Shown: positions 17,746-57,459 of the stretch, piece after piece
How positions within the stretch are numbered: position 1 is the stretch's first letter
Layout of the letters: every line of letters begins with the position of its first letter
Origin: a virus
Reading direction: 5' to 3' (one strand)
Virus record (IMG/VR): IMGVR_UViG_3300013132_000028
Span: 53,838-117,837 of that record
Length of the DNA: 64,000 nucleotides
Position numbers and translations under genes: made by a program
The notes under the pieces: generated by a model
What the model saw: the letters and a program-made list of their open reading frames with translations, nothing else
Told to the model about the DNA's origin: nothing
Databases searched by the model: none

Positions 17746-17757
17746 TATTATTTTAGT
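17746..17757 (+). promoter_or_regulatory. -10 element of leaderless promoter for the Ntn hydrolase
   Basis: TATTAT at 17746-17751 is followed by exactly 6 nt (TTTAGT) and then ATG at 17758. With standard -10 to +1 spacing the transcript would begin at the A of the start codon, giving an mRNA without a 5' leader. No ribosome site is visible. Confidence 0.6.
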
Positions 17758-18387
17758 ATGACGTGTATAGTCGCAGTTACGGCAGCAGGCCGAGTTATTA
17801 TGGCGGCCGAGCGAGGCAACAGCGACGACTCGCTTATAGTATCGTCTTTAGATTCAAAGATCGTTACCCGCGGTGAGTTTCTTTTTGGCTACTCGGGCAG
17901 CACAGGGGTCGGGCAAGCGTTTCAATACGGATTTACGATACCACCGATAAAGAACAGAAAAAACATCACTGCGCACATGGTAAGCGTGGTCGTACCTGCT
18001 ATGCGCGAGTTCTACAGAGAAAACAGCCTCAGCTGGACCGGGGACCCGAAGGAGGACGACGGGTGCACTCTGCTCTTTGGTGTGTCCGGAAGAATATACG
18101 AGTGTGACCTTTCTGACTTCCAGATGGTTGAGTACAAGGAGCTGGCCATCGGCTCTGGCGGCAACTACGCCCTGGGCTCACTCTACTCCACTAAGCACAT
18201 AAAAGACCCAAAAATCCGTCTGCGGCTAGCGGTAGAGGCCGCCATCGAGTACAGTCCCTCCTGCCGAGGACCGATAGACTACTTCTACGAAAACCCGTCC
18301 AAGGTCCGCAGGAAAAAAAGTACGAAGACTAAAACTGGTAAAAATAAAAAATCAAAAGGTCAGGCGTCTAAATCTAAGTCTTCTTGA
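17758..18387 (+). CDS. Proteasome-like Ntn hydrolase
   Basis: 209 residues. The start is set at ATG 17758, so the protein begins M-T-C-I-V; removal of Met would expose Thr1, the catalytic nucleophile of proteasome beta/HslV-type N-terminal nucleophile hydrolases. Family features are the first strand pair TCIVAVTAAGRVIMAAERG, a candidate Lys33 in LDSKIV, the GEFLFGYSGS strand, and the late GSGGNYALGSLYST plus helix RLRLAVEAAIEYS. The usual Asp17 position (GGDS in homologues) reads AAER here, so one canonical residue is replaced by Glu. A Lys/Ser-rich tail of 35 residues is extra. Related Ntn proteins occur in other actinophages; whether they act as proteases there is unknown. It is leaderless and alone on the plus strand between head and early modules. 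Confidence 0.75.
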   Translation: MTCIVAVTAAGRVIMAAERGNSDDSLIVSSLDSKIVTRGEFLFGYSGSTGVGQAFQYGFTIPPIKNRKNITAHMVSVVVPAMREFYRENSLSWTGDPKEDDGCTLLFGVSGRIYECDLSDFQMVEYKELAIGSGGNYALGSLYSTKHIKDPKIRLRLAVEAAIEYSPSCRGPIDYFYENPSKVRRKKSTKTKTGKNKKSKGQASKSKSS

Positions 18388-18476
18388 TTCTTCAGTACGT
18401 TCCAGGTAGTCAGGGCAAAGACCACTCCGCCGGCCATCAGTACCAGCAGAACTAGTAGCAGCTTCTTCAGTCTCAT
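18360..18476 (-). CDS. Small single-span membrane protein
   Basis: 38 residues, ATG at 18476 one nucleotide after the stop of the upstream gene. RLKK precedes a hydrophobic span (LLLVLLVLMAGGVVFALTTW), followed by an acidic tail. Its 3' end overlaps the convergent Ntn-hydrolase gene by 28 nt. Probably translated by coupling to the upstream gene. Function unknown. Confidence 0.55.
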   Translation of the reverse strand: MRLKKLLLVLLVLMAGGVVFALTTWNVLKNQEDLDLDA

Positions 18477-18477
18477 G

Positions 18478-18843
18478 TTATCTGGTGGACGTGACGTTCT
18501 GGTAGGGGTTCCAAGCTCTGAGGCGACTGCCGCAGCCACAGTTGTCGTCGCGCTGCCAGGCCAGCGACTTACCGCTGAGAGTCCTGATGTGGTGCACTCC
18601 GTTGCTTTTATTGGCCGGCGCAATCCTGTGCTTGTACTCCTCCTTGAAGATTAGCTCTGGACCCTGCAGAGAGTCCACTGCGATGGCGACTGTCGTGTCT
18701 GTGACGAACACGCGGGCACGGGATACCCGGTACACCCCTTGCGGGAGAGCGTTGTCATTCAGCTCAAGAGTGCCTAGGGCTTTTGTGTAGGTGTTGTCAG
18801 CCAAGACGCAGTTAGCGGGAAAGGTGTCGCTTAGAATACGCAT
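18478..18843 (-). CDS. Hypothetical protein with terminal Cys pair
   Basis: 121 residues, mostly beta-strand in character (VYRVSRARVFVTDTTVAIAVDSL), with a C-terminal DDNCGCG motif. The start is the ATG at 18843; GACAGGGACG upstream is a rather distant ribosome site. It is the second gene of the short minus-strand group 19667-18360, downstream of a DNA-binding protein. No family recognised. Confidence 0.55.
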   Translation of the reverse strand: MRILSDTFPANCVLADNTYTKALGTLELNDNALPQGVYRVSRARVFVTDTTVAIAVDSLQGPELIFKEEYKHRIAPANKSNGVHHIRTLSGKSLAWQRDDNCGCGSRLRAWNPYQNVTSTR

Positions 18844-18861
18844 TTGTGTTATTCGTCCCTG

Positions 18862-19149
18862 TCATTTTTGTGTAAACTCGTAGTGTGCCCACCCTAGCAC
18901 ACTTTTAGCCACCTCGAGTGGTAAAACTATGGTCTGCTCCACGGGGGCGCTGTTGAGAATGTCGATGGCCTCTTCTGAGGAGCCTGCTAGCAGACAGTCC
19001 GCGTAGGCTGGGTCCGCGAGAAGTACGTCGAGCGGTCGTGCCAGGGGAACCTGTGAAGCAGCGCTGGTGACCGTCGACATAGTTCGTGCACGCGGGTGCT
19101 TGGCGTTCGGCTTGTTTATCCAGACGGTGACTACGTAGTTCTTGCTCAA
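18862..19149 (-). CDS. Hypothetical protein
   Basis: 95 residues. TTG start at 19149 overlapping the upstream stop (TTGA), with GGAG 8 nt before it, so translation is likely coupled to the upstream HTH gene. N-terminal strand YVVTVWINKPNAKHP, then a helical acidic half. No recognised domain. Confidence 0.55.
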   Translation of the reverse strand: MSKNYVVTVWINKPNAKHPRARTMSTVTSAASQVPLARPLDVLLADPAYADCLLAGSSEEAIDILNSAPVEQTIVLPLEVAKSVLGWAHYEFTQK

Positions 19150-19667
19150 GTTGGTATCTCCACTCTTCTCACCACGGCCCGGTACGAGACGCCCATGGCC
19201 TTGGCCACCTCACGCAGAGGAACGCCGCGACTGTACAGGTCTCTCACTATCTCGGTCAGCTCCTGGTTTGCTCTTGCGTACGGAGAGTCCGGTCTTGTTT
19301 TAGAGCGGTAGCGTCTAGCTAGGACAGACAGCTGAGCAAGTGTTTCTAATAGTTCCGGTGGAACCCCTGGTGAAATCGGTCTGCGCTTTATGGGTATAGA
19401 AGCAGTACGAACCGGGGACGGTGAGGCGGGCATCGGAACCAGGACGGCAACCTCTAGTCCCTGATCTCCCCGGGTTATCCAAGAACGAATTGTCGTACGC
19501 GCCTTGCTTGGATTAAAAGCATCTGCAATGCTAGACAATGACCAGCCCGCTCTGTACAGCACGTTGACGCGCTGGTGCAGTTCCTTGTCCTGCAGAGTAG
19601 ACAGGTATTCCTGTTCTGCAGTCGGCAGAGTCGCCTTTCTCGCTGGCGGTCTAGTTCTATTTAGCAT
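19146..19667 (-). CDS. Phage DNA-binding protein with two helix-turn-helix segments
   Basis: 173 residues. An N-terminal HTH-like segment (VNVLYRAGWSLSSIADAFNPSKARTTIRSW split over about 36-66) and a C-terminal HTH (IVRDLYSRGVPLREVAKAMG, then VSYRAVVRRV) flank a Pro-rich linker. The layout resembles small double-HTH regulators common in actinophages, also seen at 28672-29325. A TACGAT -10 lies 7 nt upstream of ATG, so the transcript would have at most one leader base. Target sites are unknown; the 500-bp non-coding region immediately upstream is an obvious candidate. Confidence 0.65.
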   Translation of the reverse strand: MLNRTRPPARKATLPTAEQEYLSTLQDKELHQRVNVLYRAGWSLSSIADAFNPSKARTTIRSWITRGDQGLEVAVLVPMPASPSPVRTASIPIKRRPISPGVPPELLETLAQLSVLARRYRSKTRPDSPYARANQELTEIVRDLYSRGVPLREVAKAMGVSYRAVVRRVEIPT

Positions 19668-20185
19668 GTTTAGTATCGTACACCTCCTAGATACTTCTGT
19701 GCGGCTCAGAGTGTGCGGTGTATTTGTACGATTAAGCTAAAAAAGTGAAGGTTAAGTAAAAATGACTTTGCCGCGAGAGAAGGCAGTCCTTACTGTTTTT
19801 CGAGCTCCGAAACGTCTCGGCCCCCTGATGCCCTTCAAGCTTGCTCGTTCTTTTTGTTTCGGATTCGTGGAACTGCAACCGAGTAGCTGAGCCTAGTGCT
19901 TAGTGCCTAGGCTAGGGGGGCGGGGGTATGGCCGGGCTAGTGCTCTTGACTGTGGAGTTGCGTGCTAGGCTGGCTTCGTCTGGGGACAAGACTAGTGGGC
20001 AAGCTTGTTCCCTCTGTCTCTGGGGTTGTAGCTTGGGATGTGGCTACGAGCTATGAGCGCTGGGCCTTGAGCTGGTTCGAGCTGGCTCGAGCTTGGACAT
20101 GAAGAAAGCCTGGTCCTAGCTTTCCTCGGGAGAAAGTCTAGGCCAGGCTGTCAACTGGTTTTACGACTGGCTGTGGCTGGCTGGC
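19668..20185. other. 518-bp non-coding region with G/CTG-rich repeats and dyads
   Basis: No convincing gene. It contains GAGCCTAG/CTAGGCT dyads near 19890-19915, several degenerate GAGCTGG/CTGGCT repeats (20060-20100 and 20160-20185) and the strong terminator at its lower-coordinate-gene side. A 42-codon plus-strand frame at 19762-19890 has only a weak ribosome site and is not called. The region separates the divergently placed promoter of the HTH gene from the end of the cell-wall gene cluster; a regulatory or replication role is possible but not shown. Confidence 0.5.
20107..20149 (-). terminator. Rho-independent terminator after the peptidoglycan-binding gene
   Basis: On the minus strand AGCCTGGCCTAG-type and CTAGGACCAGGCT-type arms form a long, slightly imperfect stem around a CTCCCGAG-like loop, followed by TTTCTT. 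It lies 37 nt beyond the stop of the 20186-20779 gene. Confidence 0.7.
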
Positions 20186-20785: not shown

Positions 20786-20791
20786 ATCCTA
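20786..20791 (-). promoter_or_regulatory. Leaderless -10 (TAGGAT) for the peptidoglycan-binding gene
   Basis: TAGGAT at 20791-20786, then ACACAC, then ATG at 20779. Predicted +1 is the A of ATG. It overlaps the stop codon region of the upstream transglycosylase gene. Confidence 0.55.
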
Positions 20792-22555: not shown

Positions 22556-22584
22556 ATTATACCATACCAGCGCTGGAAAGTAAA
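22556..22584 (-). promoter_or_regulatory. Sigma70-type promoter (TTTACT-17-TATAAT)
   Basis: TATAAT at 22561-22556, 17-bp spacer and TTTACT at 22584-22579 on the minus strand; predicted +1 is near 22549. The spacer contains the palindrome CCAGCGCTGG instead of the GTC block of most sister promoters. It drives 22513-21616. Confidence 0.8.
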
Positions 22585-22586
22585 GC

Positions 22587-22703
22587 TCAGTCCTTGGATA
22601 ACTCGAGCTGCCTGGCCGGGTATCTCTTCTTCATGGAGCGCTGCAGGCGCTTGACCACCCAGCAGTTCAGCTTGAGCATCAGGTTGAAATAGAGGCGCCT
22701 CAT
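22587..22703 (-). CDS. Small basic amphipathic protein
   Basis: 38 residues, ATG at 22703 one base after the upstream stop. Sequence is Arg/Lys/Leu-rich (YFNLMLKLNCWVVKRLQRS). Its stop lies 3 nt from the -35 of the next promoter. Likely translated by coupling. Function unknown. Confidence 0.5.
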   Translation of the reverse strand: MRRLYFNLMLKLNCWVVKRLQRSMKKRYPARQLELSKD

Positions 22704-22704
22704 G

Positions 22705-22872
22705 TCAGACTCGCTCTCTGATGGAGAGCACGGCGGCTGCGATGGCGGCCAGGCCGGAGGCCAGCACCGCACGGTCGTTGCCCAGCACGGCGGCGACGAG
22801 CGAAGCTGCGCCGAGGACCACAGCCAAGACCGCAGACCAAACTACGTCTCGGAACTTAAGCCCGTTAATCAT
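22705..22872 (-). CDS. Small two-span membrane protein
   Basis: 55 residues; ATG at 22872 overlaps the upstream stop (ATGA). Two Ala/Val/Leu-rich segments (VVWSAVLAVVLGAASLVAAVLG and VLASGLAAIAAAVLSI, each partly quoted in 20-residue terms) separated by NDR, with a basic end. Topology is holin-like, but it sits in the early region next to an HTH gene, so a holin role is not assumed. Confidence 0.55.
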   Translation of the reverse strand: MINGLKFRDVVWSAVLAVVLGAASLVAAVLGNDRAVLASGLAAIAAAVLSIRERV

Positions 22873-23060
22873 TGCAGTGGAGATTTTCTTGTGCGGCCCT
22901 TGAGGCGCTCGGATGGGTCTCGCAGCTCCACGCCCGAGAGTTGCACTGCCTTGCGAGCTGTGCGGTAGGTGACGCTGAGTTCTTTCGCGATGGCTTCCAC
23001 CGCGAGGCCTTGCGTGTAGAGCTGTCCTGCCTTGGTTGATAGGTCGACTGCTGTTGCCAT
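22869..23060 (-). CDS. Small HTH DNA-binding protein (paralogue of 39826-40014)
   Basis: 63 residues. LYTQGLAVEAIAKELSVTYR followed by TARKAVQLSGV is a sigma-region-4/resolvase-type HTH, ending in a basic tail. It aligns along its length with the 62-residue HTH protein at 39826-40014 (LYADNMSVETVALRLGVSYP). AGGAACTG is the ribosome site. A promoter-like TTTACT at 23152-23147 is present upstream, but the expected TATAAT is displaced (TATACA), unlike sister promoters. Confidence 0.65.
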   Translation of the reverse strand: MATAVDLSTKAGQLYTQGLAVEAIAKELSVTYRTARKAVQLSGVELRDPSERLKGRTRKSPLQ

Positions 23061-23299
23061 GAGTTGTCAGTTCCTGTTCTGTGTAGTTTGTCTTTTACGC
23101 CCTCGGAGGGCCGGTTGGTGTATAGGATGCACTGTTTTCGTCGGAAAGTAAAGCCTGACTCCCGGTGTTTCTTACTGATTTCGCGACTTCCTGGCCCAGC
23201 CTGCCATGTCGAGGTACAGGCTGAGACGCAGGAAGGCTGCTGCGGGGAGACGAAGCAACTAAGTCGACCCGCAGCTTACCGGCTCACTGACCGGTAAAT

Positions 23300-23695
23300 C
23301 TATGAGTTCGCGAAGAGTTTTCGTGTCCGTCTGCCCATGGGCGCACGGTCGCGTTCCTCTTTTGGCACTCTGTCCGCAATCGTGACGAGGGCCTGGTTGA
23401 AGGACTCTACGTCCTGCAGACTCTCCCACTCCTCGGCGCGCACGTCGAGCATGAACTCTACCGGCGTCGGGTCTTGGTTTGGCTCTAGGTTCTCCCACTT
23501 TTTTGCGAGTACGTTGATGCGGTGATGGACTATGTCCCTATTAGTAAGCCCCTCGTGATTGAGCAGCACGAGTTTGGCTACGTGAAAACCGTCTGGGTCC
23601 AGGCGCATTGCGCCTAGGTCTACCGCAGAAGGGTATCTGTTGAAGCCCAGCTCCTCTGCCTGCTTGCACAGACGCTGAAGGTCGGGCGTGTTCAT
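23300..23695 (-). CDS. Hypothetical protein
   Basis: 131 residues from ATG 23695 (MNTPDLQRLCKQ). Mixed alpha/beta with DPDGFHVAKLVLLNHEG, NRDIVHHRINVLAKKW and a basic C-terminus. The frame extends further upstream over the preceding gene, but this start follows that gene's stop by 17 nt and fits the operon. A LTNRDIVHHRINVL segment could be a degenerate HTH. Function unknown. Confidence 0.6.
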   Translation of the reverse strand: MNTPDLQRLCKQAEELGFNRYPSAVDLGAMRLDPDGFHVAKLVLLNHEGLTNRDIVHHRINVLAKKWENLEPNQDPTPVEFMLDVRAEEWESLQDVESFNQALVTIADRVPKEERDRAPMGRRTRKLFANS

Positions 23696-23712
23696 TACTC
23701 TTATGTCTTCTT

Positions 23713-23958
23713 TTATGGTTTCTCCGTTCCGACGGGGAACACTGATTCCAGTAGCTCGTCTGTTGTCATAACTTGGCATGGGGTCACGCCCTGTCTCCAG
23801 TCACAGATTAGGTGCCTGTCTCCAATCGCGTGGTTAATCCCGATGGCCACAAGCAGCATCGCCAGACCCAGCACTACCCAACCGCGTGTGGTCACGCGCC
23901 AGGTGGTCTCAGGCTTGGTCTCTGCCTCGCGTATCGGGGACTGATACACTTTCGTCAT
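23713..23958 (-). CDS. Small single-span membrane protein
   Basis: 81 residues, with hydrophobic span WVVLGLAMLLVAIGINHAIG at about 28-47 and a C-terminal domain containing two Cys (CDWRQGVTPCQVM), probably outside the cytoplasm if N-in. Ribosome site GACGGAG, then ATG. First gene behind the promoter at 24008-24036, whose transcript begins with a GCCGGA/TCCGGC hairpin. Confidence 0.6.
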   Translation of the reverse strand: MTKVYQSPIREAETKPETTWRVTTRGWVVLGLAMLLVAIGINHAIGDRHLICDWRQGVTPCQVMTTDELLESVFPVGTEKP

Positions 23959-24007
23959 CGTTGCTCCGTCTCTTTGTCATTTGGCCGGACTGTCCGGCGC
24001 TAGGATT

Positions 24008-24036
24008 ATTATACCGCATCTCCCTGCCCAAGTACA
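24008..24036 (-). promoter_or_regulatory. Promoter (TGTACT-17-TATAAT) overlapping an upstream stop codon
   Basis: TATAAT at 24013-24008; the TAA stop of the 24009-24350 gene lies inside it. Predicted +1 near 24001; the perfect hairpin GCCGGA-CAG-TCCGGC occupies 23998-23984, at the start of the mRNA. Confidence 0.8.
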
Positions 24037-24350
24037 GCAGCCTTGTCTTGTATAGCAGCCTCGTCTAGGCTGGCGACTCTTTTACGGACCCTCTCGTACA
24101 GCTCCGCGGGTATGAAGCCACTGGCCATACCGGTGAGCCAGAAGTTCTTCATGTACGCTACCAGCTCTCGTATCTCCGCACTGTCCTTGAGCGTGCACTC
24201 GTTCTCGCACGCGTCTAGGCCGTGGAATGCTCGGTGGATTAGCCTACCCAGCTCGGTGTCTGCTCTTTGCTCTCTTATCAAGTCCAGGATGTGGACAGCC
24301 CAGCGGTCGACCATCTCGTCGTCGGTCACGACCATCTCGTCGTCGGTCAT
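24009..24350 (-). CDS. Hypothetical acidic protein
   Basis: 113 residues; ATGA overlap with the upstream DUF2958-like gene. The N-terminus carries a duplicated TDDEMV unit from a tandem 21-nt repeat (24311-24350), apparently a recent slippage duplication. The rest is helical ([19 protein letters not shown]). Its stop codon forms part of the -10 of the next promoter. Function unknown. Confidence 0.6.
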
Positions 24351-24655
24351 TTGTCCAGCAGCTCGCGCAGGGTCTTTGGTTCCCAGTTGCGGTCTCGCTC
24401 GATGCTAGGCACCTCGACCGCGCCGAAGCTGGTGGTCAGGCTCTCCAGCTCCTTGAGGGAGAAGTATCCCAGCTCTCGCTCCAGTCCATCGACCAGTCCG
24501 AAGAACAGGTCCTCTCCGTCGAACTCGGACGCGTACCAAGTCCAGCTTGAGTACGGCGTGAAAAACTTGACCAGCGCCTTGGCGTCTAGGCCCTTGTCCT
24601 CTTGTGAGTACAGCTTGGGCAGCTTGGCCCGCAGCTCCTTGGTGAGCAGCATCAT
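24347..24655 (-). CDS. DUF2958-like protein
   Basis: 102 residues: [58 protein letters not shown] and [15 protein letters not shown] match the DUF2958 pattern of small plasmid and phage proteins. Function in the family is unknown, although it often accompanies mobile or plasmid replication genes. The ribosome site GGAGGAACGAC is 10 nt before ATG. The mRNA begins with an 85-nt folded leader. Confidence 0.75.
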
Positions 24656-24677
24656 GTGTCGTTCCTCCTTGTTAGGT

Positions 24678-24762
24678 ACAGTCCACCAGGTGTCGGAGTT
24701 GTTTGCCGGGGCTCCTAGGATTTCGACCCCTCAGTTTGGCCACCGAACTCCTGGTGAACTGT
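24678..24762 (-). ncRNA. Structured 5' leader upstream of the DUF2958-like gene
   Basis: The two ends, ACAGTTCACCAGG (24762-24750) and CCTGGTGGACTGT (24690-24678), pair over 13 positions with one G-U. Inside, GGAGTT can pair with AACTCC and GGGG with CCCC, giving a multi-branched fold. It begins about 2 nt after the predicted transcription start (24764) and ends 23 nt before the ATG, like a cis-regulatory leader. I do not recognise a known riboswitch class. Confidence 0.55.
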
Positions 24763-24770
24763 ATAGATGT

Positions 24771-24799
24771 ATTATAGCGCAGGAGGGTGACAATGTACA
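24771..24799 (-). promoter_or_regulatory. Promoter (TGTACA-17-TATAAT)
   Basis: TATAAT at 24776-24771 and TGTACA at 24799-24794, with TTGTCA in the spacer as in sister promoters. Drives the structured leader and 24655-24009. Confidence 0.85.
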
Positions 24800-24814
24800 C
24801 CCTAGCCGGCAGGT

Positions 24815-24945
24815 GTTTCTAAAAAGGTTGGTGTGCGCTAGTCCGATGCTTCGTATAGGCAGCCCGAAGCTGCCCCATCGCTCACTGCAGGGACGAGACT
24901 AGTTCGACAACACGTCACGCACACCTTGTCTCGTTTGCGCAGGTT
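24815..24945. other. Non-coding stretch with nested dyads
   Basis: Between the stop of 24967-25257 and the next promoter. GGTTGGTGTGCGC at 24829-24841 region pairs with a GTGTGCGTGAC-type arm near 24912-24928, enclosing GGCAGC/GCTGCC (24862-24880) with a TTCGG-like loop. On the minus strand it could be a terminator-like or small structured RNA; no T-run follows. No gene seen. Confidence 0.4.
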
Positions 24946-24966
24946 TCTAAGGCTTACCCGGGAATA

Positions 24967-25257
24967 CTAGCCTTCGGCAGTCAAGCTGCTTGCCCCTGCG
25001 GGCTCCTGAGATGTCTTCCCGGAGTTCTTTTTGGTTTTGTTCTCGTACTCGTCTCTGGTCGGGTGCTTCTTGTGCAGCTGCACGAAGCTCTCGTCCGCAC
25101 AGCCGAGCTTGCAGCTGCAGACGTAGAGACGCTCGTAGTAGCGGATGGACGGCTTGCACTTGTCGTGCTCGCCCATCATGCACCAGCCACAGAGGGTACC
25201 GGCACTCCGCACGATGTAGTCGATTGGAGTGTTGTACGGGTCTTCTATCTTTGCCAC
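24967..25257 (-). CDS. Cysteine-rich small protein, probable zinc binding
   Basis: 96 residues. CGWCMMGEHDKCKP and YVCSCKLGC provide six Cys plus His, arranged like a zinc-binding unit; the tail is Lys/Ser/Thr-rich. It overlaps the upstream gene by 13 nt. Resembles small actinophage zinc proteins but no named family. Confidence 0.6.
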   Translation of the reverse strand: MAKIEDPYNTPIDYIVRSAGTLCGWCMMGEHDKCKPSIRYYERLYVCSCKLGCADESFVQLHKKHPTRDEYENKTKKNSGKTSQEPAGASSLTAEG

Positions 25258-25421
25258 GCTGGCGCTTTGGCCATTTCTTCTACGTCTTTCTTAATCATCG
25301 CGTATGCGTTTCCGCACCGGTAGCAGTACGTCTCGGTGGGAATGCCGCCGAGAATAAAGGCGTCTACTCCCGAGAAGACCAGTTCGGTGTTGTGGCAGTT
25401 AAAGGTTTTGCACTGCTTCAC
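25245..25421 (-). CDS. Small zinc-ribbon-like protein
   Basis: 58 residues from a GTG at 25421, with GAGG 7 nt before it and a GTGA overlap with the preceding stop. Two Cys pairs (CKTFNC and CYRCG) about 30 residues apart fit a zinc ribbon. The frame opens further upstream, but this start suits the overlap pattern of the operon. Confidence 0.55.
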   Translation of the reverse strand: MKQCKTFNCHNTELVFSGVDAFILGGIPTETYCYRCGNAYAMIKKDVEEMAKAPAWQR

Positions 25422-25582
25422 GATAAGACCTCGCTCTTGCGTTGCAGTTCGGCGTATGCACGCTCTAGTTGAATGTGCTCTCTCATCAGCGTTCCGTACG
25501 CGCGGATGCTGATTATGATTACAGTGCACGCTCCAAGGAGCGCAATAATGATTGCAAGAATGTCAGTTGTCAACAGCGTCAT
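25418..25582 (-). CDS. Small membrane protein with coiled tail
   Basis: 54 residues, ATG at 25582 with AAGGAGAT 8 nt upstream. The hydrophobic span ILAIIIALLGACTVIIISI (9-27) precedes a charged helix (REHIQLERAYAELQRKSE). Spanin- or anchor-like in layout, but no lysis neighbours. Function unknown. Confidence 0.6.
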   Translation of the reverse strand: MTLLTTDILAIIIALLGACTVIIISIRAYGTLMREHIQLERAYAELQRKSEVLS

Positions 25583-25588
25583 CTTTTG

Positions 25589-25879
25589 TTATCTCCTTTT
25601 TGCTTTGCGAAGAAAGTAAACGAATCCACCGAGTGGACTTGCCAGGACGTACGCTACCACGAAACCGGTGAAGCCGTCTAGTATGAAACCGACGACCAAG
25701 ATTGCGATTGCAAACAGTTTCGCGAACCGTGCCCAGGTCAACATGGACCAGAACATTCCGAAAAGCATGGTGAACTCTTCGCGGTCTTCTTCGACGGTGT
25801 GGAAGGACTTGCGCTTTGAGCGCATGGCCTTCTTGCCGACGGTTAGAATCGCCGAGTCGTGCATTGCTCCGTATAGCAT
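25589..25879 (-). CDS. Two-span membrane protein
   Basis: 96 residues from ATG 25879 (MLYGAMHDSA), with GAGGAC 4 nt upstream. Two hydrophobic segments (FAKLFAIAILVVGFILDGF and GFVVAYVLASPLGGFVYFL) and basic ends (KKAMRSKRK, RKAKRR). The mRNA starts with hairpin TCGAACC/GGTTCGA. Function unknown. Confidence 0.6.
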   Translation of the reverse strand: MLYGAMHDSAILTVGKKAMRSKRKSFHTVEEDREEFTMLFGMFWSMLTWARFAKLFAIAILVVGFILDGFTGFVVAYVLASPLGGFVYFLRKAKRR

Positions 25880-25919
25880 TTTGTCCTCGTTCCTCGAACC
25901 GCTTTGGTTCGATAGATGT

Positions 25920-25948
25920 ATTATACCGTAATGGACCGACAAAGTACA
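25920..25948 (-). promoter_or_regulatory. Promoter (TGTACT-17-TATAAT) with GTC spacer block
   Basis: TATAAT at 25925-25920, TGTACT at 25948-25943 and TTGTCG in the spacer. A 7-bp hairpin (25912-25894) starts at +2. Confidence 0.85.
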
Positions 25949-25961
25949 CCCTGAAAGGAAG

Positions 25962-25993
25962 AAACCCCCGGGAGATGAAACCGGGGGTTCTTC
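25962..25993 (-). terminator. Terminator after the 26006-26335 gene
   Basis: AACCCCCGG and CCGGGGGTT arms with an 8-nt loop followed by TCTT on the minus strand; 13 nt after the stop. The symmetrical stem could also work on the plus strand. Confidence 0.75.
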
Positions 25994-26005
25994 GGGGAGA
26001 CCTGC

Positions 26006-26335
26006 TTACTTGGCTTGGAGGACCGTGTAAGGTGTCTCGGTTAGGCAGGCAGTGTATGCCTCTGGGAATGATACTTGCAGGGTCTCGCGGTCAATGCCGC
26101 TGCGATTGCGCTTGAGAATGCGTACTCGTTCTACGCCGTTGATGGTTCCAGTCTCCGCGTCGCCTAGGAGCTCTCTGATTTGACCCTCGACCTCTAGCTT
26201 TTGAGCTTCTAGAGCCTTCAGGGCGGCTTTGGTGCTGTTGAAGCTAACGATTAGCTTCTCTGCTTCTTTACCGAGCTCGACCGAGTCGGTAGTTGTGGAG
26301 ACCACTACTTTGGTCTCTATCTTGGTGCTGGCCAT
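26006..26335 (-). CDS. Coiled-coil protein, paralogue of 36329-36670
   Basis: 109 residues from ATG 26335. A helical pair (ALKALEAQKLEVEGQIRELL) precedes GDAETGTINGVERVRI, then IDRETLQVSFPEAY and a terminal PYTVLQAK. The same pattern is in the 113-residue protein at 36329-36670. This layout (coiled coil, LGDA, NGV, ID+L, PE) is typical of small proteins encoded beside YqaJ-type recombination enzymes in phages, but no such enzyme is seen here. Role unknown. Confidence 0.65.
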   Translation of the reverse strand: MASTKIETKVVVSTTTDSVELGKEAEKLIVSFNSTKAALKALEAQKLEVEGQIRELLGDAETGTINGVERVRILKRNRSGIDRETLQVSFPEAYTACLTETPYTVLQAK

Positions 26336-26390
26336 TCGACCACTTCCCTTCGTCTTTCGTCTTTGTCCAACCGGTTGGTTGAATAGATGT

Positions 26391-26419
26391 ATTATACTAT
26401 AGTGGAGCGACAAAGTAAA
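26391..26419 (-). promoter_or_regulatory. Promoter (TTTACT-17-TATAAT) downstream of tRNA-Thr
   Basis: TATAAT at 26396-26391, TTTACT at 26419-26414 and TTGTCG in the spacer. The -35 begins 8 nt after the tRNA-Thr 3' end. The palindrome CCAACCGGTTGG lies in the early leader. Confidence 0.85.
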
Positions 26420-26426
26420 GCATCTG

Positions 26427-26499
26427 AGCCGCCTTCGGGAGTCGAACCCGAGGCCTTCGCTTTACGAGAGCGACGCTCTACCGACTGAGCTAAGGCGGC
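26427..26499 (-). tRNA. tRNA-Thr (anticodon CGU)
   Basis: Full cloverleaf on the minus strand: acceptor GCCGCC/GGCGGC, D arm AGCTCAGTCGGTAGAGC, anticodon stem TCGCT/AGCGA around loop CTCGTAA (anticodon CGT, reads ACG) and T arm CTCGGGTTCGACTCCCGAA-like. No CCA encoded. Confidence 0.95.
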
Positions 26500-26503
26500 A
26501 GGC

Positions 26504-26779
26504 TCAGTCCATTTCGCGGTCATCCGCGCCGGTCTCGCCGGGGAACAGGAGCTCCCGCAACCGCTCTTCGTACCTCGAAGCGGTCCAGTCTCCTGACAGG
26601 TCTTCGTTGTTGGACAGGTCCTCCAGCGAGAACACCGCACAGTAGCCGGGCTCTTCGAAAAGAACCGCGAGCTTGGTGTCGCTCTCGGCGGGGTCGTCGA
26701 AAATTGCGACAGTGTAAGGCATTCCGCCTCGGCCATTCCTGTGCGAAGCAGAGGCCACAATCTCGATTTTCGAGGTCAT
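26504..26779 (-). CDS. Hypothetical acidic protein, leaderless
   Basis: 91 residues. Strand-rich N-terminal half (MPYTVAIFDD, KLAVLFEEPGYCAVFSL) and acidic C-terminus. TAGAGT lies exactly 6 nt before ATG and no ribosome site is visible, fitting a leaderless transcript. It ends 5 nt upstream of the tRNA-Thr gene, so the two may share a transcript. Confidence 0.6.
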   Translation of the reverse strand: MTSKIEIVASASHRNGRGGMPYTVAIFDDPAESDTKLAVLFEEPGYCAVFSLEDLSNNEDLSGDWTASRYEERLRELLFPGETGADDREMD

Positions 26780-26800
26780 GGCCCTACTCTACCGCACGAT

Positions 26801-27007
26801 TTAGCCTACCTGGGTAAGCTCTCCGCAGCCGGTACACCAGTACCAGTCTCCGAGTACTGAGTCCTCGTCGAACTCGTGCTGCCACTCGAACTTGTCGTGG
26901 TCGCAGTTTTCTGGGTTTTTCGACCCGTCTCCCCGCACGACTTCAGAGTCGTCCACACGAACTAACCCGTCTGGTTCCATTCTAAATCTGACTATTCCGT
27001 CTACCAC
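26801..27007 (-). CDS. Small zinc-binding-like protein
   Basis: 68 residues from a GTG at 27007 that overlaps the upstream gene by 7 nt. CDHDKFEWQHEF and WCTGCG give a C-H...C-x2-C arrangement like a zinc ribbon. Function unknown. Confidence 0.55.
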   Translation of the reverse strand: MVDGIVRFRMEPDGLVRVDDSEVVRGDGSKNPENCDHDKFEWQHEFDEDSVLGDWYWCTGCGELTQVG

Positions 27008-27237
27008 AGGTCTTCCGCCTCCATTCGGTAGATGTGTCCTGGACCATTTCCCTCTGGGTCTTGACTCGGTACCATCACGGTACCGTCATCTAGGGTGAAC
27101 ACCACCGGCACACTTCCGCCGCCTTGGTACCAACCCATGTTTTCTACTTCTTCTTCGGTCATCTCCCGCACAGACTTTATGGTACGACCAACCAGTGGTC
27201 CCCACTCGTCTTGCACGTAGTCTTTACGTACTGCCAT
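27001..27237 (-). CDS. Hypothetical protein
   Basis: 78 residues with ribosome site GGAAGGA. Contains WGPLVGRTIKSVREMTEEE, then SVPVVFTLDDGTVMVPSQD, a small beta-rich unit typical of short phage proteins that read like single-domain folds. First gene of the transcript starting at 27275. Confidence 0.6.
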   Translation of the reverse strand: MAVRKDYVQDEWGPLVGRTIKSVREMTEEEVENMGWYQGGGSVPVVFTLDDGTVMVPSQDPEGNGPGHIYRMEAEDLW

Positions 27238-27281
27238 ACGAGTCCTTCCGTCGTTTCGCGAATAGGTTTCGCGTTAGACCT

Positions 27282-27310
27282 ATTATACCGCAAGGTGGGG
27301 TCAAAGTGTA
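27282..27310 (-). promoter_or_regulatory. Promoter (TACACT-17-TATAAT)
   Basis: TATAAT at 27287-27282 with TTGACC in the spacer and a poor -35. Hairpin CGCGAA/TTCGCG at 27273-27257, starting at +3. Confidence 0.75.
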
Positions 27311-27431
27311 CGCCCTAGGAGAGTCCGCGCTACTCACGGGTAATGTTACCGGTGGGTAGCGAGCTTTTCTAAGTCGGGGATTTACCCAGGGGTACCGCAA
27401 AAAACTTTTCTGAGAATCTGCTCCCCTAGGG

Positions 27432-27461
27432 TGTACAAACGTCAGTGCTAAATGGTATAAT
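27432..27461 (+). promoter_or_regulatory. Plus-strand promoter (TGTACA-18-TATAAT)
   Basis: TATAAT at 27456-27461 and TGTACA at 27432-27437; the spacer has ACGTCAGTGC, the same block as the minus-strand promoters. A GAATCAAAC/GTTTGGTTC hairpin begins at +4 (27471). Confidence 0.85.
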
Positions 27462-27519
27462 ACAGTTATTGAATCAAACAGACGGGTTTGGTTCTCTTAA
27501 CGAGATGGAGATGGATTAG

Positions 27520-27807
27520 ATGAATACTAATCTGAAGGAGCTTCAGTCCTTCTCACTTGAGACCGCATTCAAGGCGGGCGAAGAGTGGACAAGCGCTGAG
27601 ACTGATGTTCTTGCCAAAGCAAGAGCAGAAGGCATAAACTACTTTGCAATAGCAAAGATGTTAAACCGCACTGTTTACTCAGTGACGACTCAAGCAAGAG
27701 TGGTGGGAATTGCAAAACCACACTCAAATGCTCGCAAGAGCAAGAAAGTCCCAGTGCCTGCTTGTGTAAACTGCAACTTAGTGCACTCTTACAAGGAGTG
27801 CGACTAA
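27520..27807 (+). CDS. Myb/SANT-like HTH protein
   Basis: 95 residues. EEWTSAETDVLAKARAEGIN followed by YFAIAKMLNRTVYSVTTQARVVGI is a SANT/Myb-like or GcrA-type tri-helical DNA-binding unit; two Cys (CVNCNLVHSYKEC) form a short C-terminal zinc-like knot. It starts after ATGGAG. One of only two plus-strand genes within the 19-46 kb minus-strand region, each with its own strong promoter, so a regulator is likely. Confidence 0.65.
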   Translation: MNTNLKELQSFSLETAFKAGEEWTSAETDVLAKARAEGINYFAIAKMLNRTVYSVTTQARVVGIAKPHSNARKSKKVPVPACVNCNLVHSYKECD

Positions 27808-27827
27808 ACTAAATGCCAGAAGGGCAT

Positions 27828-27857
27828 TGACTAAATGTCAGTGCCCTAAGGTATAAT
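27828..27857 (+). promoter_or_regulatory. Plus-strand promoter (TTGACT-18-TATAAT)
   Basis: TTGACT at 27828-27833 and TATAAT at 27852-27857, with ATGTCAGTGCC in the spacer. Drives the WGR-like gene. Confidence 0.85.
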
Positions 27858-27910
27858 AGAACTACAACTGAATACAGAAACCAACCAACGACAAAGAGAT
27901 GGAGAAACAA

Positions 27911-28156
27911 ATGAGCGCTAAATGGTGCTTGATGAACACCAGCGATGGAAGTCGCGGTGAGAGCGGCAAGAAGAAGGTCTACGAGGTAATCCTCGAAGGC
28001 AAAAAGGTTCGCATGATTTGGGGCATGGCAGAGAAAGATTCTCGCCAGTCAAAGACCATGGAGTTTGCTACTGAACTCGCTGCTAAGTGGTTTGCTCAAG
28101 ACAAGGTTCGTGAAAAGATTCAAGAACGCGGATACGAGTTGGTCTACTCAGTCTAA
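27911..28156 (+). CDS. WGR-like small protein
   Basis: 81 residues from ATG 27911, chosen because GGAG lies 6 nt upstream. KVYEVILEGKKVRMIWGMAE, then AAKWFAQDKVREKIQERGYE, resembles a WGR domain (strand, W-G turn, helix with F..KxxEKxxKGY), a fold used in nucleic-acid-end-binding proteins. A terminator follows directly. Whether it binds DNA is unknown. Confidence 0.6.
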   Translation: MSAKWCLMNTSDGSRGESGKKKVYEVILEGKKVRMIWGMAEKDSRQSKTMEFATELAAKWFAQDKVREKIQERGYELVYSV

Positions 28157-28166
28157 AACAAAAAAC

Positions 28167-28200
28167 ACAAACCCTCTGCTGGAAGGCGGAGGGTTTTTTT
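28167..28200 (+). terminator. Rho-independent terminator after the WGR-like gene
   Basis: AACCCTC and GAGGGTT arms around a TGCTGGAAGGCG loop, followed by eight T residues. Confidence 0.9.
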
Positions 28201-28227
28201 TACGCTCGCGCGCTTTTGGCGGCAAAA

Positions 28228-28279
28228 GCATTTCGCGATTATCCGCGCAAACTCTTTGGCATTTCGCGATTATCCGCGC
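28228..28279. repeat. Two identical 21-nt direct repeats, 31-nt period
   Basis: GCATTTCGCGATTATCCGCGC occurs at 28228-28248 and 28259-28279, with a 10-nt spacer, in the non-coding interval between convergent genes (28156 and 28433). TCGCGA within each copy is palindromic. Could be an operator pair or replication-related iterons; no protein partner identified. (Quoted unit is 21 nt; key core TTTCGCGATTATCCGCG.). Confidence 0.75.
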
Positions 28280-28432
28280 GGACTACATGTTTATTTACAG
28301 AATGAGCAGTAGTTATTAACCCGTATGTCTGAAACAGGGATGCTAAATAGTCTAGCGCAATGGAAGCATCTGACCGTTGCTAATCTATTTCTAGACCTAA
28401 CAAGAGTTTTTAATTTGGTTAAATTCACAGCG

Positions 28433-28675
28433 CTAGTTCTTGACTTCAGCGCGGTAGTACTGGATTCCTTCTGCTTCCTGCGTCAGGTCTTTGACCCAAG
28501 GCAGACGGTGTCTCGGCGCGTCAAGCATCGAGCTGGCGAACTCCACGGCCGCACGCTTCGCGGCGCCGAGAGTCGAGCAGGCGGCACGGCGGTACGTGTC
28601 TGTGTCTGCGTCCTTCACTTCTACCAGCCACGCCGACTGTGGCGCCTTGTTTTTCAGCATTGTTGCGACTATCAT
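28433..28675 (-). CDS. Hypothetical protein
   Basis: 80 residues, ATG at 28675 overlapping the end of the upstream HTH gene; AAAGGACGCAA is the ribosome site. Strand-rich start (SAWLVEVKDADTDTY) and an Ala-rich helix (GAAKRAAVEFASSML). Similar small proteins occur in actinophages, but I cannot name the family. Confidence 0.6.
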   Translation of the reverse strand: MIVATMLKNKAPQSAWLVEVKDADTDTYRRAACSTLGAAKRAAVEFASSMLDAPRHRLPWVKDLTQEAEGIQYYRAEVKN

Positions 28676-32259: not shown

Positions 32260-32531
32260 CTATATTATATCATGTTTGACCGACGAAGTAAAGTCCTTCG
32301 CGCCGGCTTTCCGCAGGTCCGCCGAGATGTGCCGGAGCCAGTGGCCGTACGACCACAGTCCCATGAGGAGGCTGCTTCGCTCCAGCCCAGTTGGCCGGTA
32401 GTCCGACACGAATGTCGACGACACGTACTCGTGCCGTCGTGTCTTGCCCGCGCGACGCCCGAGAGAAGTGTACGAGTGTCGCGCGGAGTTTGTCCCGCCG
32501 GCCTTACGCCGCGGAATTCTTGACACCAATC
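32260..32531 (-). CDS. Hypothetical basic protein whose end overlaps a promoter
   Basis: About 90 residues if started at GTG 32531. KTRRHEYVSSTFVSDYRPTG and LMGLWSYGHWLRHISADLRK read like a real protein, and third codon positions are strongly G/C, as in neighbours. The start is uncertain, since it lies inside the end of the VWA gene. The last codons cover the complete TTTACT-17-TATAAT promoter of the next gene. Confidence 0.5.
32264..32292 (-). promoter_or_regulatory. Leaderless promoter (TTTACT-17-TATAAT)
   Basis: TATAAT at 32269-32264 and TTTACT at 32292-32287, with TCGTCG in the spacer. The ATG at 32257 coincides with predicted +1. It combines the strong promoter type with a leaderless start. 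Confidence 0.85.
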
Positions 32532-39737: not shown

Positions 39738-39766
39738 ATTATACCGCATAGGGGAGAAAATGGACA
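39738..39766 (-). promoter_or_regulatory. Leaderless promoter (TGTCCA-17-TATAAT)
   Basis: TATAAT at 39743-39738 and TGTCCA at 39766-39761; predicted +1 at 39731 is the A of ATG. Confidence 0.75.
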
Positions 39767-45022: not shown

Positions 45023-45028
45023 ATCTTA
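45023..45028 (-). promoter_or_regulatory. Leaderless -10 (TAAGAT) for the DUF7455-like gene
   Basis: TAAGAT at 45028-45023, six bases, then ATG at 45016. Confidence 0.55.
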
Positions 45029-49378: not shown

Positions 49379-49384
49379 TACAGT
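49379..49384 (+). promoter_or_regulatory. Leaderless -10 (TACAGT) for 49391-49618
   Basis: TACAGT at 49379-49384, six bases, then ATG at 49391. Confidence 0.5.
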
Positions 49385-52392: not shown

Positions 52393-52712
52393 GCGAAGAA
52401 CCACAACTACTAAAACGCATGAACCGAATGGTGGGTGCGCCCGGTCATACTTTACCCCTGCAACAAAACTACGAGTGGCAGCTACACGCGGCCTGCAAGG
52501 GCATGGACACCGAACTGTTTTACCACCCAGACGCAGAGCGCGGGCACGCCAAGAGAAAGAGGATAGTAAACGCTAAGAAAATCTGCGCCTCCTGCCCCGT
52601 GCTGAACGTCTGCGCAGAGTTTGCTCTGAGCAACGTAGAGGTGTACGGTATCTGGGGCGGTATGACCGAAAGAGAACGTCAGAGAATTACGGGCAGGGCA
52701 ATCAGACTTTAG
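52383..52712 (+). CDS. whiB: WhiB-like Fe-S transcriptional regulator
   Basis: 109 residues (GTG start; an in-frame ATG 13 codons later is possible). HAACKGMDTELFYHPD, KKICASCPVLNVCAEFAL and GIWGGMTERERQR give the four [4Fe-4S] ligand Cys and the Gly/Trp turn plus basic helix of the Wbl family, which binds principal sigma factor in actinobacteria. Phage Wbl proteins (e.g. of mycobacteriophage TM4) are known to repress host whiB genes. Strong evidence that the host is an actinobacterium. Confidence 0.92.
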   Translation: MRVGEEPQLLKRMNRMVGAPGHTLPLQQNYEWQLHAACKGMDTELFYHPDAERGHAKRKRIVNAKKICASCPVLNVCAEFALSNVEVYGIWGGMTERERQRITGRAIRL

Positions 52713-54231: not shown

Positions 54232-54378
54232 CTATTTCCTCGGGTTTTTAATTCTGACGAGACGCCGACGGTCTTTCGCGCCTCTCGGTTCGCCGGTAAT
54301 CCAGATGTATTTCTTCCAGGCTTTTCCGTTTTTACGGTGGTCGTTGCTGCCGACCGGCTGTGATTTTTTAACTACCAT
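54232..54378 (-). CDS. Small basic protein, leaderless
   Basis: 48 residues from ATG 54378, set by TATGTT exactly 6 nt upstream. MVVKKSQPVGSNDHRKNGKA, KKYIWITGEPRGAKDRRRLV. Strongly basic, compact; possibly nucleic-acid binding. Longer upstream frame is C-rich non-coding DNA. Confidence 0.55.
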   Translation of the reverse strand: MVVKKSQPVGSNDHRKNGKAWKKYIWITGEPRGAKDRRRLVRIKNPRK

Positions 54379-54479
54379 GTGACTAACATAGCACCTAAGC
54401 GGTCCGGCGACTGTGCAACGCGCCAAAACTCCCCACCTCTCTTCTCTCCCCCCCTCCGCCGCCGCTCCCTCTACTGCCT

Positions 54480-54516
54480 GACTGGCCGTCCGGCCGGCGG
54501 CGCTTTTCATTATGTC
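54480..54516. repeat. 37-nt repeat unit, copy 1 of 3
   Basis: Starts GACTGGCCG and ends CTTTTCATTATGTC. Preceded by a polypyrimidine tract (54424-54475). Overlaps the stop of the glycosyltransferase gene. Confidence 0.7.
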
Positions 54517-55306: not shown

Positions 55307-55312
55307 ATCGTA
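55307..55312 (-). promoter_or_regulatory. Leaderless -10 (TACGAT) for the glycosyltransferase
   Basis: TACGAT at 55312-55307, six bases, then ATG at 55300. Confidence 0.55.
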
Positions 55313-55508: not shown

Positions 55509-55515
55509 GACGCGC

Positions 55516-55521
55516 TAGTGT
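55516..55521 (+). promoter_or_regulatory. Leaderless -10 (TAGTGT) for the methyltransferase
   Basis: TAGTGT at 55516-55521, six bases, then ATG at 55528. Confidence 0.55.
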
Positions 55522-55527
55522 TGTCAC

Positions 55528-56460
55528 ATGGACGACGCCGACAAGTACCCCGAGGAGAGCGTGGCGCCCGCCGTCGCGCGGCTGACGGACCCGGCCTGGG
55601 CCGCCCGGCGCCAGGACCCGCGCCGCCTGCACGTCTACCCGGAGCTGCCGTCCGCGCCGAGCCACGTGCGAGTCGCCGCGTCGTGGACGCGCATAGAGCG
55701 GCTCGCCACCTGCACCAACGAGCGAAACCGCGGCGCCATGAACGCGCTGGTCTCGAGGACCTCGGCCATGCACGACGACGTGCTTCACTTCTCCCGCGCG
55801 TACGAGCCACCCGAGCCGCTGATACTGCTGCTGCTCCCGCTCGTCGAGACCAAGCCGCGCTACTTCGTAGAGGTCGGCGCCGGTCCCGGCGGCAGCAGCG
55901 CGACCTTCTTCCTGGAGAAGCAGTGGAAGTGGCCAGGCATGCTGATCGAGCCGTCGATCCCGTGCTATCGAGAGCTAGTGAAGCAGGACAGAGACGTGCA
56001 CCTAGACGCGAGCGTGCTCTGGAGCGAGAGCGGGCTAGAGAAGCGTTTCATGTACAAGGAAGACGACGCGCTGGTCACACACAGCCCCAGGGTGATGGAG
56101 GACAACGAATCGTTGCCAGAAGGCTGGCTAGAGCGCACCACTAAGACGCTCACTCTAACCGACGCCCTGATAAACGCAGAGCAGCTGCACAGCAAGTGGC
56201 TGGACAAGATCGGATACATGAACATAAACACGGTCGGCTCAGAGCTGCAGGTGTTGCAAGGCATGAACTTCTCGGCTTACGACGTGCCAATAGTCACTGT
56301 GGCGCACCACAAAAACGAGACAAGCAGGGCCTCCGTCTTTGCTCACATGACAGATGTAGGCTACACACGTCTGCTCAAGGACGCCTGGTCCACGAGAGAA
56401 GACTGGTACATAAAAAATACGCTGCCCACACTAAAGTTTTTTGCAGGCTACCTAGGATAA
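55528..56460 (+). CDS. FkbM-family methyltransferase
   Basis: 310 residues. After an N-terminal 105-residue extension, RYFVEVGAGPGGSSATFFLE is the SAM-binding strand-loop, LIEPSIPCYRELVKQ the acidic ribose-contact strand, then IGYMNINTVGSELQVLQGM and VPIVTVAHHK, as in FkbM enzymes, which O-methylate sugars. The usual D-x-E-G reads N-T-V-G here, a change near the active site. The first 250 bp are GC-richer than the rest. First gene of the plus-strand glycan operon. Confidence 0.75.
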   Translation: MDDADKYPEESVAPAVARLTDPAWAARRQDPRRLHVYPELPSAPSHVRVAASWTRIERLATCTNERNRGAMNALVSRTSAMHDDVLHFSRAYEPPEPLILLLLPLVETKPRYFVEVGAGPGGSSATFFLEKQWKWPGMLIEPSIPCYRELVKQDRDVHLDASVLWSESGLEKRFMYKEDDALVTHSPRVMEDNESLPEGWLERTTKTLTLTDALINAEQLHSKWLDKIGYMNINTVGSELQVLQGMNFSAYDVPIVTVAHHKNETSRASVFAHMTDVGYTRLLKDAWSTREDWYIKNTLPTLKFFAGYLG

Positions 56461-56469
56461 AATACTCTC

Positions 56470-57459
56470 ATGAAAAACATCTTAGTTCTCGGCGCCGGAG
56501 GTCTGATCGGAGGCCACCTGTGCAAGCGACTCATGCAGGACAGCGGCTGCCACGTGACCGGCGTGGACTTCAAAGAGCACCCGTACTTTGGAACTGACTT
56601 CGTAGACCGGTGGTACACCGGCGACCTGCGCGACAAAAACTTTGTCTGGCATGTGTTTGACAGACCCTACGACGAGGTGTACCAGCTTGCAGCCGACATG
56701 GGCGGCGCCGGCTACATATTCACGGGCGAGAACGACGCAGCCGTAATGTCAAACTCTATGACCATAAACCTAAACGTATTAGACGTAGCTCATGCAGTAG
56801 GCGTACCAGGAGTGTTTTTCTCGTCCAGCGCCTGCGTCTACCCAGAGCACGCGCAGCTCTCGGTCGAAGGCCTAAGTCTTGTAGAGAGCAGCGCCTATCC
56901 GGCAGCGCCCGACAGCGAGTACGGCTGGGAAAAGCTGTTTGCCGAAAGGCTGTACCTGGCGTACAACAAGAACTACGGAATGAAAAACAGTATTGGTCGG
57001 TACCACAACGTATTCGGCACGCATTGTGCCTACAACAACGGCAGAGAAAAAGCACCGGCGGCTATAGCGAGAAAAGTCGCACAGGCGTCCACGTCAGTAC
57101 AACCAGGCAGCACCATAAAAATATGGGGAGACGGCCAACAGACCAGGTCTTTTCTTTGGATAGACGACGCGATAAACGCCACCATATTGCTGCACCGAGA
57201 CGAGTACTTTCGCGGTCCGGTGAACATCGGCTCAGAACGTATGGTTACAATAGACGAGTTAGTACGTATAACCATGAAGGCAGCAAACAAAACGCTAGAC
57301 ATAGCGCACGTACCGGGTCCAATAGGAGTAGCGGCAAGAACCTCTGACAACACTCTGATAAAGCAAATGCTGCGTTGGGAACCAATGGTGCCATTGGAAG
57401 TAGGAATGTCACTGCTGTACAAATGGGTAGAAGGGCAAGTGTGGGCATTCAGTGAATAA
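56470..57459 (+). CDS. GDP-mannose 3,5-epimerase-like NAD-dependent sugar epimerase
   Basis: 329 residues. Rossmann start MKNILVLGAGGLIGGHLCKR; YQLAADMGGAGYIF and FFSSSACVYPE are characteristic of GDP-D-mannose 3',5'-epimerase; the catalytic Tyr/Lys are in EYGWEKLFAERL; SIGRYHNVFGTHCAYNNGREK and the C-terminal substrate region follow. It would convert an activated hexose (likely a GDP-sugar) for use by the neighbouring transferases. Leaderless: TAAAAT (56458-56463), which includes the preceding stop, lies 6 nt before ATG. It overlaps the next gene by 8 nt. Confidence 0.82.
   Translation: MKNILVLGAGGLIGGHLCKRLMQDSGCHVTGVDFKEHPYFGTDFVDRWYTGDLRDKNFVWHVFDRPYDEVYQLAADMGGAGYIFTGENDAAVMSNSMTINLNVLDVAHAVGVPGVFFSSSACVYPEHAQLSVEGLSLVESSAYPAAPDSEYGWEKLFAERLYLAYNKNYGMKNSIGRYHNVFGTHCAYNNGREKAPAAIARKVAQASTSVQPGSTIKIWGDGQQTRSFLWIDDAINATILLHRDEYFRGPVNIGSERMVTIDELVRITMKAANKTLDIAHVPGPIGVAARTSDNTLIKQMLRWEPMVPLEVGMSLLYKWVEGQVWAFSE

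What the first reader, a model, noticed from the sequence alone, without database searches (positions are those of the whole stretch)
17746..56470. At least eleven genes with a -10 element exactly 6 nt before ATG: a leaderless-mRNA class
Genes starting at 17758, 20779, 26779, 32257, 39731, 45016, 49391, 54378, 55300, 55528 and 56470 all have TAnnnT (or TATAAT) followed by exactly 6 nt and ATG, with no ribosome site. Standard -10/+1 geometry puts transcription start on the A of AUG. The fixed spacing across both strands and unrelated genes is unlikely to be chance. Leaderless translation is known to be common in actinobacteria; a phage dividing its genes between leaderless and leadered classes would be a notable strategy. 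Two further genes (19667, 58591) have 7 nt.
Basis: partly seen in the sequence, partly recalled or inferred. Interest (0 to 1): 0.8.

Follow-up and report, generated by a model that had tools for sequence, protein, structure and literature searches.

The report
Leaderless gene class in actinobacteria phages
About one in ten genes of this bacteria-infecting virus, and of its relatives, appears to have its promoter so close to the gene that the messenger RNA starts directly on the start codon with no ribosome-binding leader; this way of expressing genes is well known in the actinobacterial hosts but has hardly been charted in their viruses.

Summary
In the 117.8-kb phage record around the window, starts chosen without looking upstream have TAnnnT exactly 6 nt before them in 9 of 133 genes (1.5±1.2 in shuffles, 0/300 reach it). 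Other spacings from 0 to 30 are near background, with 7 nt mildly raised. The peak recurs in DSL-LC01 plus 14 IMG/VR relatives (43 at 6 nt, 19 at 7, about 8 elsewhere below 21 nt) and in cultured actinophages (Pumpernickel 31, Racecar 14). It is absent in T4 and SPO1. Independent promoter signs sit where a start site on the A of ATG demands: TGn extended -10, TTG at -35, pyrimidine at -1. SD motifs are depleted, and no leaderless start is TTG. Eleven of 12 candidates with an ortholog in the nearest relative keep a -10 at 6-7 nt; 54378 does not. An HTH gene near the portal keeps it in 30 of 35 homologs. A 50-aa ORF at 40649 was missed. Three WhiB genes support an actinobacterial host. Best explanation: SigA-type promoters making leaderless mRNAs. 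This is a new phage example of a known kind (leaderless genes in Actinobacteria; single predictions in mycobacteriophages). No 5' ends were measured, and a regulatory strategy is untested.

The parts
17746..17751 (+). -10 TATTAT, 6 nt before ATG 17758 (HslV/proteasome-beta-like gene 17758-18387)
   Evidence: kept in G003 (TATTATTCTAGT ATG)
19675..19680 (-). -10 TACGAT, 7 nt before ATG 19667 (HTH gene 19146-19667, near the portal)
   Evidence: -10 at 6/7 nt of ATG/GTG in 30 of 35 non-redundant homologs
20786..20791 (-). -10 TAGGAT in GGTGTAGGATACACAC, 6 nt before ATG 20779 (peptidoglycan-binding protein)
   Evidence: identical in G003 while the flank differs
26786..26791 (-). -10 TAGAGT, 6 nt before ATG 26779
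   Evidence: 8 of 8 homologs have a -10 at 6/7 nt; 7 nt in G003
32264..32269 (-). -10 TATAAT, 6 nt before ATG 32257; -35 TTTACT 17 nt further upstream
   Evidence: G003 has TATAATAGACTC ATG
32287..32292 (-). -35 TTTACT of the 32257 promoter
   Evidence: shared with the leadered promoter family of this phage
39738..39743 (-). -10 TATAAT, 6 nt before ATG 39731
   Evidence: G003 TATAATAGTGAT ATG
   Evidence: ortholog 74% identical with TATAATAGATGA ATG
45023..45028 (-). -10 TAAGAT in GTGTAAGATAC, 6 nt before ATG 45016 (DUF7455 protein)
   Evidence: kept in G003
49379..49384 (+). -10 TACAGT, 6 nt before ATG 49391
   Evidence: ortholog has TAAACT-N6-ATG
54385..54390 (-). TATGTT, 6 nt before ATG 54378: doubtful member
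   Evidence: not kept in G003, which has AGGAAGGGAG instead; internal to ORF 54232-54510
55307..55312 (-). -10 TACGAT, 6 nt before ATG 55300
   Evidence: G003 TACGAT-N6-GTG
55516..55521 (+). -10 TAGTGT, 6 nt before ATG 55528
   Evidence: G003 TAGCGT-N7-ATG
56458..56463 (+). -10 TAAAAT, 6 nt before ATG 56470 (NAD-dependent epimerase)
   Evidence: no ortholog in the G003 fragment
58578..58583 (+). -10 TACAAT, 7 nt before ATG 58591 (weak ORF)

Best explanation
About ten to fourteen of roughly 133 genes of this actinobacteriophage are read from host SigA-type promoters whose -10 hexamer ends 6 (sometimes 7) nt before the start codon. Transcription then begins on the A (or G) of the start codon, and the host translates the 5'-terminal AUG/GUG without a Shine-Dalgarno site. 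The remaining genes are leadered: SD-led, either within operons or behind TTKACW-N17-TATAAT promoters about 20-120 nt (typically 40-55 nt) upstream. Shown here: the enriched fixed geometry, its conservation, its promoter marks and the shortage of SD motifs. Inferred: the actual 5' ends, host RNA polymerase use, and translation of the leaderless mRNAs.
For: Spacing peak at 6 nt, absent in shuffles, in internal ATGs and for the in-frame-stop artefact. Same peak in DSL-LC01 plus 14 relatives (43 at 6 nt, 19 at 7 nt, mostly 3-15 elsewhere below 21 nt), in Pumpernickel (31; P about 1e-12 for 6+7) and weakly in Racecar (14; P 0.04); none in T4, SPO1 or phiC31. Independent marks in the family set (51 genes against 968): TGn 31% v 4%, TTG at -35 16% v 2%, pyrimidine at -1 84% v 37%, SD 27% v 65%. 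In Pumpernickel, TTG at exactly -35 in 57% v 3%, and its deposited gene starts agree with all seven candidates checked. 11 of 12 candidates with an ortholog in G003 keep a -10 at 6-7 nt, several with changed bases, including ATG to GTG at 55300. HTH gene 30/35 homologs, 26779 family 8/8, portal 0/34. Starts are ATG or GTG, never TTG, in the 51-gene set, matching the RTG rule for leaderless translation in mycobacteria (PMC4633059). Three WhiB genes and an all-actinophage portal neighbourhood point to an actinobacterial host.
Against: No mapped 5' ends. In the window phage itself a consensus TTG at -35 is missing in the nine genes (only 32257 has a clear family -35), so promoter strength is uncertain. 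Per relative, the excess at 6+7 nt is often not significant against the stricter background. Some relatives (G015, G017, G019) show no peak in the part held. A minority have an SD motif as well (2/9 own, 14/51 family).
Confidence: 0.9

Rival explanations
1. Chance or method artefact: TAnnnT is a short motif, and start calling or in-frame stops create the apparent spacing.
For: TAnnnT is expected about 1.5 times per spacing in this genome, so 1-3 of the listed genes (for example 54378, perhaps 58591) are probably chance. 12 nt is in frame, so TAA/TAG in the hexamer closes the ORF.
Against: Only spacing 6 (and 7) is raised; TA[CT]nnT is raised too; internal ATGs show nothing; T4 and SPO1 show nothing with the same gene caller. 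TGn and -35 marks are not explained.
Confidence: 0.02
2. The -10 elements are real promoters, but transcription starts a few nt upstream or at several positions, giving very short leaders that are translated by other routes, for example 70S scanning or coupling with the upstream gene.
For: Spacing 7 is also enriched; several genes (20779, 45016, 56470) lie 9-20 nt behind an upstream gene on the same strand, so read-through transcripts would exist as well.
Against: A pyrimidine at -1 and a purine (ATG/GTG only) at +1 is the usual start-site pair, placed exactly on the start codon. SD sites are depleted, and TTG starts are absent from the 51-gene set.
Confidence: 0.06
3. The conserved element is mainly an operator or regulator site that happens to abut the start codon, not a leaderless promoter.
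For: For the HTH gene, GTAC is ten times more frequent upstream than elsewhere, peaking at -34 and -13.
Against: Most other leaderless genes share only TAnnnT/TGn, with no common palindrome. The sites overlap the predicted -35 and -10, as expected for an operator inside a promoter, so the two readings are compatible.
Confidence: 0.02

Closest known systems
Leaderless (TA-led) genes of Actinobacteria and Deinococcus-Thermus, Zheng et al. 2011 (PMC3160421)
   Same: TANNNT about 12 bp upstream of the start codon (6-nt gap), no SD; taken as leaderless genes; over 20% of genes in Actinobacteria.
   Different: There in host chromosomes; here in a phage lineage at roughly 10% of genes, with several single genes conserved in this state.
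Mycobacterial leaderless transcripts, Shell et al. 2015 (PMC4633059)
   Same: ATG or GTG at the 5' end necessary and sufficient; TTG does not work. The phage set uses only ATG and GTG.
   Different: Measured by RNA-seq and ribosome profiling there; inferred from sequence here.
Predicted leaderless promoters of Cluster O mycobacteriophages (PMC4351075)
   Different: Three promoters (PL1, PR2, PL2) are so described; here a genome-wide class with statistics and cross-phage conservation.
Lambda cI leaderless mRNA
   Same: A phage gene translated from a 5'-terminal AUG (lambda cited in PMC3160421 and cI in PMC9031893).
   Different: A single gene in an enterobacterial host where leaderless mRNAs are rare.

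Membership tests
Leaderless (TA-led) genes | -10-like TANNNT at a fixed 6-7 nt before the start codon, above chance | tested here: met
Leaderless (TA-led) genes | Shine-Dalgarno motif absent or depleted | tested here: met
   2/9 v 76/120 in own phage, 14/51 v 628/968 in family
Leaderless (TA-led) genes | Start codon ATG or GTG only (RTG) | tested here: met
   48 ATG, 3 GTG, 0 TTG; best -10/start pair in the HTH family is ATG or GTG only
Leaderless (TA-led) genes | Transcript 5' end on the first base of the start codon | not testable with these tools
   needs dRNA-seq or Cappable-seq
SigA/sigma-70-type promoter | -35 TTGACA-like about 17 nt upstream of the -10, or TGn extended -10 | tested here: met
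   family TTG at -35 16% v 2%, TGn 31% v 4%; Pumpernickel TTG 57% v 3%
SigA/sigma-70-type promoter | -35 in the window phage's own leaderless set | tested here: inconclusive
   0/9 have TTG at -35; 32257 has the family TTTACT; TGn 3/9 v 3/120
Actinobacteriophage | Homology to actinophages and an actinobacterial host marker | tested here: met
   listed portal hits are actinophages, best DSL-LC01; three WhiB genes

The most novel reading that the evidence does not exclude
The leaderless class is a functional regulon: this phage lineage keeps certain genes (the HTH gene near the portal, the 26779 family) leaderless so that they are translated independently of SD-led initiation, for example early in infection or after the phage has altered ribosomes or initiation factors.
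Probability: 0.12. Interest if true: 0.75.

Novelty: new member of a known kind. Interest (0 to 1): 0.45.

Why it matters
It gives a sequence-level case that actinobacteriophages use leaderless initiation as a regular gene class, with cultured phages (Microbacterium phage Pumpernickel) in which it can be tested directly. It also says that phage gene callers which rely on SD sites will miss or misplace starts, including tiny genes such as the 50-aa ORF at 40649. Conservation of the leaderless state at one HTH gene across about 35 diverged phages makes it possible to ask whether the initiation mode itself is under selection.

Tried and rejected
A shared GTGTAnGATAC leaderless motif (19667, 20779, 45016, G000:14508) was sought in 20 relatives and is not a lineage-wide motif (the pattern asked for a 6-nt gap and ATG, so 7-nt and GTG cases were outside it). 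Accessions tried for several reference phages, mycobacteriophages among them, were not held, so mycobacteriophages were not tested. Literature searches for a genome-wide leaderless class in phages found none in the held library, which does not exclude one elsewhere. In-frame-stop bias and start-caller bias were considered and excluded.

Full report
What was checked. The window is bases 53,838-117,837 of a 117,837-bp IMG/VR virus record. I read the rest of the record and called genes with my own coding-potential program, which chooses starts by coding score and ATG>GTG>TTG only and never looks at upstream signals (133 genes, 85% coding). All coordinates in the finding carry the stated geometry.

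Is it more than chance? TAnnnT exactly 6 nt before the start: 9 genes, against 1.49±1.20 in dinucleotide shuffles of the same upstream regions, none of 300 reaching 9. Spacing 7: 4 against 1.6. No other spacing from 0 to 30 is enriched. With the stricter TAnnAT: 7 at 6 nt and 3 at 7 nt against 0.34 per spacing. Two artefacts were excluded. Internal in-frame ATGs have no peak. And although the TAA/TAG inside such a hexamer is an in-frame stop 12 nt upstream, the non-stop version TA[CT]nnT peaks as well, while spacings 3, 9, 12 and 15 do not.

Is it wider than this phage? Yes. In DSL-LC01 plus 14 IMG/VR relatives found through the portal, pooled counts are 43 at 6 nt and 19 at 7 nt, with mostly 3-15 at other spacings below 21 nt. 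A second rise at 27-29 nt fits ordinary leadered promoters. Single relatives are mostly too small to be significant alone. Among cultured phages, the Microbacterium phage Pumpernickel has 31 genes at 6 nt (28 unique after its terminal repeat) and the Arthrobacter phage Racecar 14. T4 (3), SPO1 (1) and phiC31 (0) show no excess with the same program. In the part of Pumpernickel where I read the deposited annotation, the seven candidates have exactly those starts.

Independent promoter marks. If these hexamers are promoters with +1 on the start codon, other marks must sit at fixed places. They do. Family set, 51 genes against 968 others: extended -10 TGn 31% v 4%, TTG at -35 16% v 2%, pyrimidine at -1 84% v 37%, SD motif 27% v 65%. 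In Pumpernickel TTG stands at exactly -35 in 57% of leaderless candidates against 3% of other genes, giving a textbook -35/17 nt/-10/6 nt/ATG logo. In the window phage alone the set is small: TGn, pyrimidine at -1 and SD depletion are significant, the -35 is not.

Conservation. In the closest long relative, G003 (IMGVR_UViG_3300032050_000128), 11 of 12 candidates with an ortholog keep a -10 at 6 or 7 nt, several with changed bases: TACAGT to TAAACT at 49391, TAGTGT to TAGCGT with 7 nt at 55528, ATG to GTG at 55300. The exception is 54378, where the relative has an SD-like purine run. The list also gains a 50-aa ORF at 40649 with TATAAT-N6-ATG, 74% identical in the relative with the same geometry. 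Across all loci, the HTH gene 19146-19667, a few genes from the portal, has a -10 at 6/7 nt before an in-frame start in 30 of 35 non-redundant homologs (best pairs all ATG or GTG), many only 31-48% identical. The 26779 family has it in 8 of 8 and the portal in 0 of 34; control spacings average 4% (12% for the HTH family itself, because any of 2.5 in-frame starts per gene was allowed). The HslV-like gene 17758 and the peptidoglycan-binding gene 20779 are leaderless in some relatives and SD-led in others, so the state changes during evolution.

Two classes in one genome. The SD-led genes of the small-gene region often lie behind TATAAT promoters with a family -35 (TTTACT/TGTACA/TTGACA followed by CGTC) 20-120 nt upstream and carry GACGAAAGGAC-type SD sites. 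Gene 32257 uses that same promoter type moved up to the start codon.

How it most likely works. Host RNA polymerase with its main sigma factor recognises these promoters and starts on the A/G of the start codon; host ribosomes translate the 5'-terminal AUG/GUG. In mycobacteria ATG or GTG at the 5' end is necessary and sufficient and TTG fails (PMC4633059); the phage set contains ATG and GTG and no TTG. Three WhiB genes and the portal relatives make an actinobacterial host likely. Transcription starts and translation are inferred, not measured.

Against what is known. TANNNT about 12 bp upstream of starts as the sign of leaderless genes, over 20% in Actinobacteria, is published (PMC3160421). 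Three leaderless promoters were predicted in Cluster O mycobacteriophages (PMC4351075) and one in phage Adephagia (PMC11373665). So this is a known kind found as a sizeable class in a phage lineage. I found no genome-wide account for phages in the held library, which is not complete.

Noticed in passing
19146-19667 (-) and homologs in L007-L086: The promoter region of the leaderless HTH gene holds ten times more GTAC than other upstream regions, peaking at -34 and -13 (21 nt apart, overlapping -35 and -10), which suggests an operator and autoregulation.
   Followed up: partly
22561-37587 (-), 27456 and 27852 (+): A repeated leadered promoter type, TTKACW/TGTACA-N17-TATAAT with a conserved CGTC just after the -35, stands 20-120 nt before SD-led small genes.
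   Followed up: partly
17758-18387 (+): HslV/proteasome-beta-like peptidase gene in a phage (PF00227, phrog_1040), switching between leaderless and SD-led states among relatives.
   Followed up: partly
about 52476-52685 (+); G000:C1:15849-16049 and 17868-18077 (-): Three WhiB-family genes in one phage genome.
   Followed up: no
63406-64000: Long alanine/glutamate/lysine-rich repeat coding stretch running off the end of the record.
   Followed up: no
26426, 38158, 46378 (-): Three tRNA genes: Thr-CGT, Pro-CGG, Gln-CTG.
   Followed up: no
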